64,000 bases of DNA from Kribbella sp. NBC_01245 (GTDB lineage Bacteria > Actinomycetota > Actinomycetes > Propionibacteriales > Kribbellaceae): the NCBI RefSeq assembly GCF_036226525.1, contig NZ_CP108487.1, positions 3,844,001 to 3,908,000 on the forward strand, given 5' to 3'. Positions 50,089 through 55,130 of this stretch are shown piece by piece. The notes under the pieces were generated by a model. It had not been told where the DNA came from. It made no database searches and saw only the letters and a list, made by a program, of their open reading frames with translations. Position 1 is the stretch's first letter. Each line of letters starts with the position of its first letter. The position numbers were made by a program, and so were the translations under genes.

Positions 50089-50970
50089 TCACTTGATCCC
50101 GGAGAAACCGATGGAGTTGGTGATCCGCTTCGCGAACGCGAGGAACAGGATCAGGATCGGCAGCGCGGCCACCAGCGTCGCCGCCATCAGCCCGGCCCAG
50201 TCCGGCGAGCCCTGCGGCGTCTGCGACCGGAAGATGCCGAGGGCAACGGTCAGCACGCGCACGTTCTCCTGCTGCCCGACCAGCAACGGCCAGAAGTAGT
50301 CGTTCCACGAGGTGATGTACGTCAGGATCGCGAGCGTGGTGATCGGCGCCGCGCTCATCGGCAGGATCATCTGGAAGAAGATCCGGGGATGGCCGGCGCC
50401 GTCGATCATCGCGGCCTCCTCCAGCTCCCGGTTGATCGTGATGAAGAACTGGCGCAGGAAGAAGATCGCGAACGGCGTCATGAACGCACTCGGCAGGATG
50501 ATGCCGGCAAAACTGTTCAGCAGGCCGAGGTTCTTGATCAGTACGAAGTTCGGCAAGGTGCTGAAGATCGGCGGCACCATCAACGCCGCCAGGAACAACG
50601 CGAACACCTTGTCCCGGCCGGGCCAGCGCAACCGGGCGAAGGCGTACGCCGCCATCGCGCTGAAGAAGACCTGGCAGAACGTCGTGACGGTTGCCACGAC
50701 CAACGAGTTCCGCAGGTACAGCCAGAAGTTGACCGAGGCGCCGCTACCACCTTGGGCCTGCGCCTCCTCGACCGAGGCCAGACCGAGCACTCGTCTGAAC
50801 GCGCCGAGCGTAGTCTCGACCGGCAGCAGCGAACCGGGGTCGCCGACCAGCGCCACGTTGTTCGACAGCGCCGTACGCAACATCCAGTAGAAGGGGAAGA
50901 TCGTCACCAGCATCAGCAGGACAAGCATGGTCCACGCGACCACCCGGCCCGGGTTGATCCGTTCTCTCAT
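50089..50970 (-). CDS. carbohydrate ABC transporter permease, MalG-type
   Basis: The 293-aa permease has six hydrophobic segments and the EAA loop EAAMIDGAGHPRIFFQMILP that contacts the ATPase. It starts RINPGRVVAWTMLVLLML and ends SIGFSGIK. It pairs with the MalF-type protein at 52117-53007. A TnpB insertion of about 1.1 kb lies just upstream of its ATG and now separates it from malF. Confidence 0.94.
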   Translation of the reverse strand: MRERINPGRVVAWTMLVLLMLVTIFPFYWMLRTALSNNVALVGDPGSLLPVETTLGAFRRVLGLASVEEAQAQGGSGASVNFWLYLRNSLVVATVTTFCQVFFSAMAAYAFARLRWPGRDKVFALFLAALMVPPIFSTLPNFVLIKNLGLLNSFAGIILPSAFMTPFAIFFLRQFFITINRELEEAAMIDGAGHPRIFFQMILPMSAAPITTLAILTYITSWNDYFWPLLVGQQENVRVLTVALGIFRSQTPQGSPDWAGLMAATLVAALPILILFLAFAKRITNSIGFSGIK

Positions 50971-50985
50971 CGGTAGTCCGGCGCG

Positions 50986-51017
50986 GAAATCCCGTCCTCG
51001 AGGGCGGGGATTAGACG
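50986..51017 (+). repeat. left copy of the sequence that flanks tnpB
   Basis: GAAATCCCGTCCTCGAGGGC followed by GGGGATTAGACG forms a hairpin (arms 50988-51012). It resembles the right flank at 52085-52116 in the same orientation. It lies 18 bp upstream of the malG start. It may be the element's left end or a relic of an earlier right end. Confidence 0.5.
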
Positions 51018-51068
51018 CCGGTCCCTCCCTTCAGAAAATTGTCGGTGGCGGTCGCCACAATTGGTGGC

Positions 51069-52079
51069 GTGTCCAGGTACCGGCTTGTCCCGACCCCCGC
51101 GCAGGAGACTGCGCTGCTGGGGCACTGCGGCCATGCCCGGTACGTGTGGAACCTCGGACTCGAACAGCGACTGATGTGGCGACCAGGACGGCCACCCACC
51201 CCCGGATACAATGCACAGTGCTCGCAGCTGACCGAAGCCCGCGCCGCGGAGCCGTGGCTGGCGGCCGGGTCGCAAACGGTGCAACAGCAAGCATTGCGCG
51301 ACCTCGACCAAGCCTGGCGAAACTTCTTTGGCGGTACTCACTCCAGGCCGCCGTGGCGCAGGGCCGGCCGACGCGAGGGGTTCCGGATCGTAGGGCCACA
51401 GGCCCAGCGGGTCGAACGGTTGAACCGTAAATGGGGCCGGGTGCTGGTGCCGAAAGCCGGCTGGATCAAGTTCCGCTGGTCGCGACAGGTGCCGGATGCA
51501 AAGTCGTACCGGATCACCCGCGACCGGGTGGGGCGGTGGCACATCGCCTTCGCCGCCATCCCCGACCCGGTACCGGCACCCGGAAGCGGTGAGGCCGTCG
51601 GAGTCGACCGCGGTGTCGCTGTGTCGGCGGCCCTGTCCACCGGCGAACTGCTCGCATGCCCCGGACTGCGCGGCCCCGAAAAGACCCGGCTGAAGCAGCT
51701 GCAACAGCAGCTCGCGCGGTGCAGACGCGGATCGAACCGGCGCACCCGGATAAAGATAGCCATCGCCCGACTGCTGGCCCGCGAAACCGATCGGCGCAAG
51801 GACTGGGTCGAGAAGATCTCCACCTATATCGCTGGGCGGTTCGACCTGATCCGGGTCGAGGACCTGAAGATCCGCAACATGACCCGCTCCGCACGCGGCA
51901 CCGTCGAGCAGCCGGGCCGCAACGTCCGGGCCAAAGCGGGATTGAACCGGGGCATCCTCGCTCAGCATGCTGATGTGAATGCAGCCAGGAACATCGCGGC
52001 CGGACGGGCCGTGACCGCACGCCGAGGCACGAGGTCTGTGCCGTTGAAGCGTGAACCACATCTCGCTACCTCCGCGTAG
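51069..52079 (+). CDS. orphan TnpB-like RNA-guided nuclease lacking the zinc-finger segment
   Basis: From the GTG at 51069 the 336-aa product opens SRYRLVPTPAQETALLGHCG, HARYVWNLGLEQR, as in IS200/IS605-type TnpB. RuvC acids are present: D180 in AVGVDRGVAVSAALSTG, E264 in IRVEDLKIRNMT and D302 in HADVNAARNIAAG. The E-to-D distance is 38 residues, against 83 in ISDra2 TnpB (E278 to D361). The missing stretch normally holds the two C-x-x-C pairs of the zinc finger, and none are seen here. No TnpA gene is adjacent. It lies antisense within the alpha-galactoside operon. Confidence 0.85.
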   Translation: MSRYRLVPTPAQETALLGHCGHARYVWNLGLEQRLMWRPGRPPTPGYNAQCSQLTEARAAEPWLAAGSQTVQQQALRDLDQAWRNFFGGTHSRPPWRRAGRREGFRIVGPQAQRVERLNRKWGRVLVPKAGWIKFRWSRQVPDAKSYRITRDRVGRWHIAFAAIPDPVPAPGSGEAVGVDRGVAVSAALSTGELLACPGLRGPEKTRLKQLQQQLARCRRGSNRRTRIKIAIARLLARETDRRKDWVEKISTYIAGRFDLIRVEDLKIRNMTRSARGTVEQPGRNVRAKAGLNRGILAQHADVNAARNIAAGRAVTARRGTRSVPLKREPHLATSA

Positions 52080-52084
52080 TGGGA

Positions 52085-52120
52085 TGAAATCCCCCGCCAC
52101 CAGGCAGGGGAGGACGTCAA
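52085..52120 (+). mobile_element. right end of the tnpB element with hairpin, probable omegaRNA 3' end
   Basis: CCCC-C-GCC (52091-52098) pairs with GGC-A-GGGG (52103-52110) around ACCA, followed by AGGACGTCAA. TnpB elements of this type end in such a hairpin, which is part of the guide-RNA scaffold. TCAA (52117-52120) overlaps the stop codon of malF, so the guide would start with malF sequence. Confidence 0.6.
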
Positions 52121-53007
52121 GCCAGGTCACTCTCCTTGGCCCGCAGCAACTTCATCTGGAGCAACGAGACCACCGCCAGGATCGCGAACAACACCATCGC
52201 CATCGCGGAGGCGTAACCGAAGTCGAACCGGGTGAACGCCCGCTCGTAGATGTAGTAGTAGAGGACCCGGGTCGCGTTGATCGGACCACCCTGCGTGGTC
52301 ACCGCAACCGTGTCGAAGATCTGGAACGACCCGATCATCGTCACCACCAGCACCATCACCAGGACGGGCCGGAGCAACGGCAGGGTGATCCGCCGGAACG
52401 CGTGCCACTCCGAAGCACCGTCGACTTCCGCCGCTTCGTAGACGTACGACGGAATCGTCTGCAGGCCGGCGAAAACAAGCAGGGCGGTATAGCCCATGTG
52501 CCGCCAAACGTTGATCAAGGCAATCGTCGGGATCCCCCAGACCGATTCACCGAAGAACGCGATCGGGTCGATTCCGACCCACGTCAGCAGCTGGTTCAAG
52601 ATGCCGACCTGGTAGTCGAGCATCCAGAACCAGACCAGGGCGACCACCACGTTCGCGATCAGGTACGGCAGCAGGATGACGCCGCGGACCACGATCGACT
52701 TCGTCAGCCGGAACATCAGCATCGCGATCCCGACCGCGAGCACGGTCTGCAATCCGATGTTGATCACCACATACTCGACGGTGACCACGAGCGCGTTCCA
52801 GAAGAAGCTGTCATGCAGCATTCGCTCGTAGTTGTCGAGGCCGTTGAACTTCGGCGGCGTGAGCAGGCTGTATTCGGTGAAACTCAGGTACGCGCCGCGC
52901 AACGTGGGCCAGATGTAGAACACCACGAAGCCGATGGTGGCCGGGATCAGGAAGATCACGGCCACCTTCAAGTCGCCGTACCGTCGGGTGCTCGCCTTGG
53001 CGGTCAC
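52117..53007 (-). CDS. carbohydrate ABC transporter permease, MalF-type
   Basis: The 296-aa permease has six hydrophobic segments and EAA loop EAAEVDGASEWHAFRRITLP. It starts at a GTG with AGGAGG, 9 bp after the GH36 stop. The C-terminus LLRAKESDLA is usual, so the TnpB insertion did not truncate it. The insertion boundary coincides with its TGA stop. A MalK-type ATPase gene is absent, as is usual for actinobacteria that use a shared MsiK. Confidence 0.94.
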   Translation of the reverse strand: MTAKASTRRYGDLKVAVIFLIPATIGFVVFYIWPTLRGAYLSFTEYSLLTPPKFNGLDNYERMLHDSFFWNALVVTVEYVVINIGLQTVLAVGIAMLMFRLTKSIVVRGVILLPYLIANVVVALVWFWMLDYQVGILNQLLTWVGIDPIAFFGESVWGIPTIALINVWRHMGYTALLVFAGLQTIPSYVYEAAEVDGASEWHAFRRITLPLLRPVLVMVLVVTMIGSFQIFDTVAVTTQGGPINATRVLYYYIYERAFTRFDFGYASAMAMVLFAILAVVSLLQMKLLRAKESDLA

Positions 53008-53015
53008 CGGGCCTC

Positions 53016-55130
53016 CTAGTCGAGGGAGCGGATGTCCAGCAGGATCGCGTTCTCGGGCCACTGGGCAGGGATCTGTACGCCGACCGCGGCGAGGGCGGCG
53101 CCGTTCAACTCGACGGCGTCGCTCATCCAGTCGGCTGCCCGCAATTGCTTGCCGGGCGTGTGCAGGCGCGATACCCGGTAGCGCCGGTCGGGCGCCAAAC
53201 CAGGAATGCGAACCCGGCCCAAGTCGGAGGTGATCGACTGGACCAGCTGTACGGCGGCGAAGACGGCCCGCGAGCCGTCTTGGGCCACCACACCGTGCAA
53301 CCAGAATTCGTCCGGCCCACGGTCCGCGCGGACCACCCGGCCGGTATGCAAAAGCGGACGTAGTTCCTTGTGCAGCGCAACCCACCCTGCCAGCTCGGCC
53401 CGTTCCTCCGGCGTCGCCGCACTGATGTCCCACTCGATGCCGAAATGGCCGAACATCGCGGTGATCGCCCGGAACGCGAGGGACTGGGTCCGTCCGGAGC
53501 TGTGCGAGGTCGGCGGGCCGACGTGGCAGCCGATCAACTCGGGCGGTAGCAGCAGTTGGGTGTAGCGCTGGATGCGTTGCCGTTCAAGGGCGTCGTTGTT
53601 GTCGCTACCCCAGACGCGGTCGGTGCGTTCGAGGATGCCGAGGTCGACTCGCGCACCACCCGACGAGCAGGACTCGATCTCCAACCCGGGATGGCGTTCG
53701 CGCAGTTCGTCCAGCAGACGGTAGATCGCCAGCGTCTGCGCGTGCACACCTGGTCGGCCGGTCAGTTGGTTGCCCGCGTCAACGAGATCGCGGTTGTGGT
53801 CCCACTTGAGATACGAGATGTCCTTGTACTCGGCAAGTAACGAGACGAGCCGCTCGAGCAAGTAGTCGTACGCCTCGGGAATGCCGAGGTTGAGCACTTG
53901 CTGATGCCGGGCGGTCGGCGGCATTCGGTTGCCGGTGGCAAGGATCCACTCGGGGTGATTGCGGGCTAGGTCGGAGTCCGGGTTGACCATCTCCGGCTCG
54001 AACCAGAGGCCGAACTGTAGTCCGAGTCCGATCACGTGGTCGACCAACGGGTGCAGCCCCTTCGGCCAGACGCCGGCGTCGACGTACCAGTCCCCCAGTC
54101 CGGCGCGATCGTCCCGGCGGCCGTTGAACCAGCCGTCGTCGAGTACGAACCGCTCGGCGCCGACCTCGGCGGCCGCGTTCGCGATCGCCTTCAGCCTTTC
54201 GAGGTCGTGGTCGAAGTAGACGGCTTCCCAGGTGTTCAGTACGACTGGCCTAGTGGTGCTCGGGTGGTTCGGCCGGGCCCGCAGGTATTCGTGGAATCGG
54301 GTCGACGCTTCGTCAAGACCCACGCCGTACGCGCCGAAAATCCAGGGCGTCTCGTACGACTCGCCTGGTTCGAGCCGTCCCTCGCCGGGGAGCAGCAGCT
54401 CGCCACCACCGACGACGCCGAAGCCGGTCTGCCCGCGTTCGGCGTACGTCTTGTGGTTGCCGCTCCACGCGGTGTGGATACCCCAGACCTCGCCGGAGTT
54501 GAAGCCGAACCCGCGCTCACCGGCGTACAGCAGCAACGTCGCGTCGGCCCCGGTCCGGCCGCGGCGGCTGTCCCGCACGTGCGCGCCCTGAGTGAAGGCG
54601 TGCCGCTGCGGCGCCCGCTCGCCCGCGTGCCTGCCGGTCATGTCGAACAACTCGGTGGCCTCGGTCGGCACCGGCAGGGCGATCCGCAACCCGTCCACCG
54701 TGTACGCCGACGCGCCCACGTTCGTGACCTCAGCCTTCGCCCGCACGAGCCCGGACGGCGTGAGCTCGAGGTCGACCGTCAACTCGAGCCCGGCCGCCTC
54801 GTCAACCGCCTTGACCCGGACGGCGTTGTCGCCGATGACCGCGGCCTCAGTCCTTTGGAAGGCGGTAGAGAAGTTGACGCCATCGCGATGACCACTCAAC
54901 CCGGGGAGGCCGAACCACCCGGACGAGTACTCGGGAACGACCGTGACCGGCTGGTTCTCGTCGAGCCCGTTACCGGCCTGCGCCGTACCGGCACCACGCT
55001 TCAGCTCCGCCAGATCCAGCTCACCGAGGTCCGCACCCCAATGAACCACCACCGGCAGCGTCGGCCCGGCGCAGTCAAGCACCAGACTGACCCCAGCGGC
55101 CCGGAAGTGCAGCAGGTCAATGTTCGACAC
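53016..55130 (-). CDS. alpha-galactosidase, GH36
   Basis: The 704-aa enzyme has the N-terminal beta-sandwich, then the GH36 barrel. Visible motifs are ERFVLDDGWFNGRRDD, GLWFEPEMVNPDSDL, nucleophile Asp in SYLKWDHNRDLVDAGNQ, IESCSSGGARVDLGIL, and acid/base Asp in RVWGSDNNDALERQR. It hydrolyses terminal alpha-galactosides. No signal peptide is present, so it acts in the cytoplasm on sugar imported by the MalFG-type transporter encoded downstream. The start is GTG. It leads the operon, and a 10-base direct repeat lies upstream. Confidence 0.94.
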   Translation of the reverse strand: MSNIDLLHFRAAGVSLVLDCAGPTLPVVVHWGADLGELDLAELKRGAGTAQAGNGLDENQPVTVVPEYSSGWFGLPGLSGHRDGVNFSTAFQRTEAAVIGDNAVRVKAVDEAAGLELTVDLELTPSGLVRAKAEVTNVGASAYTVDGLRIALPVPTEATELFDMTGRHAGERAPQRHAFTQGAHVRDSRRGRTGADATLLLYAGERGFGFNSGEVWGIHTAWSGNHKTYAERGQTGFGVVGGGELLLPGEGRLEPGESYETPWIFGAYGVGLDEASTRFHEYLRARPNHPSTTRPVVLNTWEAVYFDHDLERLKAIANAAAEVGAERFVLDDGWFNGRRDDRAGLGDWYVDAGVWPKGLHPLVDHVIGLGLQFGLWFEPEMVNPDSDLARNHPEWILATGNRMPPTARHQQVLNLGIPEAYDYLLERLVSLLAEYKDISYLKWDHNRDLVDAGNQLTGRPGVHAQTLAIYRLLDELRERHPGLEIESCSSGGARVDLGILERTDRVWGSDNNDALERQRIQRYTQLLLPPELIGCHVGPPTSHSSGRTQSLAFRAITAMFGHFGIEWDISAATPEERAELAGWVALHKELRPLLHTGRVVRADRGPDEFWLHGVVAQDGSRAVFAAVQLVQSITSDLGRVRIPGLAPDRRYRVSRLHTPGKQLRAADWMSDAVELNGAALAAVGVQIPAQWPENAILLDIRSLD

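What the first reader, a model, noticed from the sequence alone, without database searches (positions are those of the whole stretch)
50986..52120. Orphan TnpB with an in-frame loss of the zinc-finger segment, splitting an alpha-galactoside operon
All three RuvC acids are kept (D180, E264, D302), but E264 to D302 is only 38 residues, about 45 fewer than in ISDra2 TnpB. The four zinc-finger cysteines are missing, and the frame is open to the end. Either it is a recently deleted relic, or a TnpB that works, binds RNA, or acts as a repressor without the target-loading segment. It lies antisense between malF and malG of one operon, where a toxic or mobile gene would be expected to be lost.
Basis: partly seen in the sequence, partly recalled or inferred. 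Interest (0 to 1): 0.72.

Follow-up and report, generated by a model that had tools for sequence, protein, structure and literature searches.

The report
Deleted TnpB relic inside sugar operon
A damaged copy of a common RNA-guided transposon gene sits in a sugar-transport operon of a soil bacterium; it has lost part of its cutting domain, its guide-RNA part looks intact, and it sits in the gene overlap so neatly that neither neighbouring gene is broken.

Summary
In detail: tnpB (window 51069-52079, +) has lost 165 bp (55 aa) in frame, keeps D180/E264/D302 and lacks the Zn finger. The host is a Kribbella with 11 copies of this element family; 8 have an intact tnpB, 84-88% identical to this one. 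The deletion is private: none of the other 88 copies examined in the genus has it, nor any of the other 23 matches (E<=1e-38) in 293 genomes of the order. Mapped on ISDra2 TnpB it spans about residues 299-358: nearly the whole TNB domain plus the end of the first RuvC segment with strand beta5. The protein is most likely nuclease-dead (inferred). The omegaRNA region, both ends and the guide look intact, so a sibling TnpB might still use this guide in trans (untested). Neither operon ORF is broken: the element lies exactly in the ATGA stop/start overlap of two permease genes; its target TCAT keeps the second gene's start and its terminal TCAA gives the first gene a new stop. This is the family's habit: 56 of 71 placeable copies lie antisense on start-like codons, against 53 of 791 background sites. 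Verdict: a decayed member of a known kind; the insertion habit is the more interesting part.

The parts
50967..50970 (+). Target tetranucleotide TCAT kept beside the left end; on the - strand it is ATGA, with the start codon of the downstream permease gene
   Evidence: empty sites in other Kribbella
50971..52120 (+). The IS200/IS605-type (tnpA-less) element, left end to terminal TCAA
   Evidence: alignment of 11 copies in the genome and empty-site comparison
50990..51010 (+). Left-end hairpin (TCCCGTCC-TCGA-GGGCGGGGA), read by eye, not folded
   Evidence: sequence; aligned position
51069..52079 (+). tnpB with the in-frame deletion, 336 aa from the GTG; open frame from TTG at 51039 (346 aa)
   Evidence: Pfam OrfB_IS605 and HTH_OrfB_IS605 were the only two families at E<=0.001 (the intact sibling was not scanned as a control)
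51965..51966 (+). Deletion junction; 165 bp present in the siblings are missing here
51990..52120 (+). Predicted omegaRNA scaffold, intact
   Evidence: single-sequence fold with four hairpins, z -3.51; consensus of 40 copies supports three of them, 22 of 22 consensus pairs formed here; third-position diversity low at the 3' end of the gene
52117..52120 (+). Right end TCAA; on the - strand it supplies the TGA stop of the upstream permease gene
52121..52140 (+). Predicted guide, the flanking 3' end of the upstream permease gene; matches empty sites of other Kribbella
52117..53433 (-).
   Evidence: BPD_transp_1
50089..50970 (-).
   Evidence: BPD_transp_1; match of at least 84% identity in 36 of 38 Kribbella genomes, own included, weaker matches only in the other 2

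Best explanation
This is one decayed copy of a multicopy, tnpA-less IS200/IS605-type TnpB element of Kribbella. It sits in the ATGA overlap of two permease genes, and a private 165-bp deletion has removed nearly all of the TNB/Zn-finger domain and part of the RuvC fold, so the protein has most likely lost RNA-guided cleavage. Shown: the deletion, its uniqueness among the copies examined, the conserved ends and omegaRNA sequence, and a site that spares both ORFs. Inferred: loss of activity, and that the copy persists because it is harmless where it sits, perhaps helped by sibling TnpB proteins that could load its omegaRNA.
For: Eight siblings with intact tnpB in the same genome, 84-88% identical in DNA. 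In 38 Kribbella genomes only this copy aligns with the deleted protein from end to end, and none of the other 88 copies lacks this segment in this way. In 293 genomes of the order, of 24 matches at E<=1e-38 only this one runs across the junction (13 candidates scored per genome). Lost residues map to ISDra2 about 299-358 (my reading of the alignment); RuvC is 185-326 and 360-375, TNB 327-359, inserted after beta5 (PMC10097598, passages). Most ZnF substitutions were depleted in a mutational scan of ISDra2 TnpB (PMC11844463, a preprint, passages); a RuvC mutant of AmaTnpB no longer processes omegaRNA (PMC10278001, passages). Decay is common: of 88 copies assessed, 80 look intact, 3 have in-frame internal deletions (L001, L011, L167), 3 are frame-broken (L010, L215, L216), 1 is truncated (L211), 1 has an internal stop (L162). 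One deletion in three keeps the frame by chance. Start and stop of the flanking genes preserved.
Against: Singleton changes in this copy (8 nonsynonymous, 7 synonymous) do not differ from those of the intact siblings (66 and 66), so there is no sign of relaxed selection; with 15 changes the test has little power and fits a recent deletion. The frame is open to the end. Half of the family's six internal deletions or frame breaks keep the frame, slightly more than one in three, but the numbers are tiny. A structure prediction gave no usable model, so damage to the RuvC fold rests on the alignment alone. No assay or expression data.
Confidence: 0.82

Rival explanations
1. Guide donor: the protein is dead, but the copy still makes its omegaRNA, which intact sibling TnpB proteins load in trans, so the insertion is still protected against the empty site. 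It is then a non-autonomous omegaRNA element. (This can hold together with the best explanation.)
For: 22 of 22 consensus omegaRNA pairs formed and strong folding; the scaffold is nearly identical to that of the 8 siblings with intact tnpB; TCAT plus guide matches the empty site exactly over 20 nt in 2 of 29 fetched genus loci, and with 0 or 1 mismatch over the first 12 nt in 15 of 29.
Against: No expression data; use in trans is not shown for this family; a recent deletion would leave the omegaRNA intact anyway; 14 of 29 relatives have 2 or 3 mismatches in the first 12 nt.
Confidence: 0.3
2. Functional TnpB without Zn finger: it binds omegaRNA and DNA and acts as a minimal nuclease or as a repressor of the transport operon.
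For: All three acidic residues and the N-terminal half are kept; frame open; the omegaRNA could form.
Against: The deletion takes RuvC core including beta5; private to one copy; no other genomic target of the guide within 3 mismatches, and its own target is split by the element; most ZnF mutations are depleted in ISDra2.
Confidence: 0.06
3. Assembly or sequencing artefact that dropped 165 bp.
For: The family is repeated in the genome; no reads could be checked.
Against: The copy differs from each of the 8 intact siblings by 12-16% in DNA, so collapse with one of them is unlikely; the genome is a single 8.68-Mb contig; the junction is clean and in frame.
Confidence: 0.04

Closest known systems
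ISDra2 TnpB (IS200/IS605, PDB 8h1j, 8bf8)
   Same: Homologous protein with the D-E-D triad; omegaRNA overlapping the 3' end of the gene and the right end (described for ISDra2 in PMC10097598; by conservation here)
   Different: Target TCAT/TCAC instead of the TAM TTGAT; no tnpA in the element; this copy lacks about residues 299-358
AmaTnpB and the 'Derived TnpB' clade (RuvC-III NADXN)
   Same: The AmaTnpB TAM is TCAC; the RuvC-III motif here is HADVN, NADVN in L011 and in two viral-contig relatives, close to the derived type NADXN
   Different: Clade assigned by motif only; no tree was built, and AmaTnpB was not compared by sequence
TldR (TnpB-like nuclease-dead repressors)
   Same: TnpB relative with a probably inactive nuclease
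   Different: TldRs have an inactivated RuvC, keep guide and DNA binding, and many are tied to non-transposon genes (PMC13418256, passages); here the acidic residues are kept and the guide matches only its own insertion site

Membership tests
IS200/IS605-type TnpB element | OrfB_IS605 protein with RuvC D-E-D | tested here: met
   Pfam PF01385 and PF12323 over cut-off; D190, E274, D312 in the 346-aa frame
IS200/IS605-type TnpB element | CXXC-CXXC Zn finger (TNB domain) | tested here: not met
   Absent in this copy, present in 8 of 8 siblings with intact tnpB. It is a deleted member, not an intact one
IS200/IS605-type TnpB element | Fixed terminal sequence, fixed target word on the left, no target duplication | tested here: met
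   TCAT on the left here and TCAA on the right; 11 of 11 copies in the genome end in TCAA, 10 of 11 have TCAT on the left (L008 has no recognisable left end); empty sites
IS200/IS605-type TnpB element | omegaRNA at the 3' end | tested here: inconclusive
   Supported by conservation and structure; expression not testable here
IS200/IS605-type TnpB element | Y1 TnpA in the element or genome | tested here: not met
   None in the element; in the own genome one partial Y1_Tnp match just over cut-off (27.7 bits), which the genus-wide search did not list; that search found 1 of 38 genomes with a match. tnpA-less elements are a known subgroup (recalled)
TldR | RuvC catalytic residues lost | tested here: not met
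   All three kept
TldR | Guide matches a regulated gene elsewhere | tested here: not met
   Only its own site within 3 mismatches over TAM plus 15 nt
TldR | RNA-guided DNA binding and repression | not testable with these tools
   Needs an experiment

The most novel reading that the evidence does not exclude
The copy is a non-autonomous guide element: protein dead, omegaRNA alive and used by sibling TnpB proteins, within a TnpB family whose copies persist without a resident transposase by occupying ATGA/GTGA start and stop-start sites, where TCAT/TCAC on the left and TCAA on the right leave both genes intact.
Probability: 0.25. Interest if true: 0.68.

Novelty: new member of a known kind. Interest (0 to 1): 0.4.

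Why it matters
It suggests how TnpB copies decay, protein first and guide RNA last. The family's insertion habit gives a testable reason why tnpA-less TnpB elements can last in compact genomes: their target word is the reverse complement of a start codon plus A, and their last four bases can write a new stop codon for the gene before it.

Tried and rejected
Structure prediction of the deleted protein with 3 homologues from viral contigs gave mean pLDDT 44.2; it is not used, and no fold search was run. Rfam gave nothing meaningful (2 matches, best E 0.36, far below the gathering scores). The promoter/terminator scan found nothing. The branch test for relaxed selection was inconclusive. The family-level search returned the same 38 genomes, and at its threshold only the own genome matched, so it adds nothing. 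A binomial p-value printed used a provisional count (29 of 34) typed before the counting rule was fixed, and is not used.

Counting rules for insertion sites: exploratory, several candidates per copy; left-end signature: 50 of 89 placed, 38 start-like, 26 with a rebuilt stop, 21 with both; 39 dropped; TCAT/TCAC nearest the expected left end, within 20 bp: 71 of 89 placed, 56 start-like, 34 rebuilt stop, 28 both; 18 not placed. The last is reported because it drops fewest. Backgrounds: window ATGA sites 24 of 288 start-like and 1 of 288 both; window ATGA plus GTGA sites 52 of 790 start-like and 6 of 790 both, 53 of 791 start-like with the interior rule. Background against me: in the 14 relatives' operon loci L057-L070 it is higher, 92 of 611 start-like and 39 of 611 both, because these loci are rich in ATGA junctions, this one included. 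The codon score was trained on genes of this operon and its relatives.

One search did not assess L154 because of its position in the locus. Papers not held: the TldR paper (PMC11702177) and the TnpB classification paper (PMC10691335). No title or abstract start in the listings spoke of start-codon insertion by TnpB elements; those papers were not read for it, and the library lacks most subscription papers.

Full report
What is there. The host is a Kribbella: the closest named loci for the permease gene are from K. catacumbae, K. pittospori and other Kribbella, and the window lies in a single 8.68-Mb contig. The ORF at 51039-52079 (+) is TnpB (PF01385, PF12323). The genome holds 11 copies of the family: 8 with intact tnpB and three shortened, namely this one (L001), L010 and L011. 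A more distant TnpB (34% identity, L013) lies next to the only Y1 TnpA trace found in the genome.

The deletion. Against the siblings the copy lacks exactly 165 bp, codons 310-364 of L002, with about 1 bp of microhomology at the junction 51965/51966. L002 carries its CXXC pairs at residues 338/341 and 357/360, and the 7 other intact siblings align there with the same cysteines. By the alignment to ISDra2 TnpB the lost residues correspond to about 299-358. Nakagawa et al. (PMC10097598; passages, section 13) give RuvC 185-326 and 360-375, TNB 327-359 inserted between beta5 and alpha4, and the catalytic residues D191, E278, D361. The deletion therefore removes all but the last residue of TNB, and the end of the first RuvC segment with beta5. 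The three acidic residues are present, but the fold that places them is incomplete. That the protein is dead is an inference from this, supported by depletion of most ZnF mutants in ISDra2 (PMC11844463, passages). A structure prediction failed to give a usable model.

Is the deletion shared? Not in what was searched. In 38 Kribbella genomes only this copy aligns with the deleted protein from end to end. With the intact sibling as query, 89 copies pass E<=1e-100; all 89 were fetched, and only this one has this gap (L154 judged from its full-length match). Shorter fragments below that threshold were seen and not studied. In 293 genomes of the order, 24 matches passed E<=1e-38, in 12 genomes, and only ours crosses the junction. 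Decay is common in the family: of 88 copies assessed, 80 look intact from the probable start, 3 have in-frame internal deletions (L001 55 aa, L011 about 103 aa, L167 25 aa), 3 are frame-broken, 1 is truncated and 1 has an internal stop. Keeping the frame is thus no sign of function. Singleton substitutions give no contrast with the siblings (8 nonsynonymous and 7 synonymous, against 66 and 66).

The omegaRNA. Third-position diversity among the 9 copies with a readable tnpB is 0.16-0.38 per 20-codon block up to codon 340, then 0.104 (341-360), 0.181 (361-380) and 0.056 (381-400). The 131 nt up to the right end fold into four hairpins (z -3.51). RNAalifold on 40 of the 86 available tails gives 22 pairs in three of the four hairpins, 9 with compensatory changes; the hairpin around the tnpB stop codon is not in the consensus, and the covariation term is small (-1.67 kcal/mol). 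This copy forms 22 of 22 consensus pairs. In ISDra2 the part of the omegaRNA needed for cleavage starts about 116 nt before the guide, which here lies 3' of the deletion. So the guide RNA may be alive although the protein is not. Its guide (52121-52140) has no other TCAT-adjacent target in the genome within 3 mismatches over TAM plus 15 nt. It matches empty sites of other Kribbella: over 20 nt exactly in 2 of 29 fetched genus loci; over the first 12 nt 0 mismatches in 2, 1 in 13, 2 in 13, 3 in 1.

The site. In 29 genus loci fetched the two permease genes abut at this point through a 4-bp overlap, ATGA in 28 and GTGA in 1, and the 14 named loci L057-L070, which partly repeat them, agree (13 ATGA, 1 GTGA); none holds the element. 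Six further close matches were not fetched. Here TCAT (= ATGA) stays on the left as the start of the downstream gene, and the element's terminal TCAA (= TTGA) gives the upstream gene its stop after an alanine codon (GCT; GCA if the flanks are joined). Both proteins stay complete; the overlap is lost and 1150 bp carrying an antisense gene now separate the genes, so expression of the second gene may suffer (not tested).

The habit. Over the 89 copies a uniform rule placed the left end of 71 (62 TCAT, 9 TCAC). Of these, 56 are antisense to a start-like codon, 34 have an upstream reading frame ending in the rebuilt stop, and 28 have both. In the window background, 53 of 791 ATGA/GTGA sites are start-like and 366 gene-interior, while 0 of 71 insertions are interior; both features together occur at 6 of 790 background sites. 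Among non-interior sites the contrast is 56 of 71 against 53 of 425. In 14 operon loci of relatives the background is higher, 92 of 611 start-like and 39 of 611 both. The coding test is a simple codon-usage score trained on genes of this operon and its relatives, so the size of the effect is approximate. TCAC is a known TAM (AmaTnpB, PMC10278001, passages). The genus search found a Y1 transposase in 1 of 38 genomes; it did not list the partial match that one search found in the own genome, so this is a lower bound. Recent transposition by a resident TnpA looks unlikely; how the copies persist is open.

Conclusion. A decayed, nuclease-dead copy is the best reading (0.82). That its guide RNA is used by siblings is possible (about 0.3). 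A working Zn-finger-less TnpB or repressor is unlikely (0.06).

Noticed in passing
89 tnpB loci in 30 of 38 Kribbella genomes (L001-L011, L139-L216): The family mostly sits antisense on ATGA/GTGA start codons, often at stop/start overlaps, and its terminal TCAA rebuilds the stop of the upstream gene.
   Followed up: partly
L011 (G000:C1:878783-882319): Another in-frame deletion derivative in the same genome: it lost about residues 181-283 with RuvC-I and II but kept the Zn finger, the reverse of the window copy.
   Followed up: partly
L013 and L026 (G000:C1, about 1475847-1479692): A divergent TnpB (34% identity) beside a partial Y1 TnpA match (27.7 bits, cut-off 23), the only TnpA trace found in this genome.
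   Followed up: no
L151 and L206; L209 and L210: Pairs of copies from different genomes lie at what looks like the same gene start, which suggests old insertions inherited by descent.
   Followed up: no
38 Kribbella genomes: Dozens of intact tnpB copies, but a Y1 TnpA listed in only 1 of 38 genomes (a lower bound); what mobilised them is unclear.
   Followed up: partly
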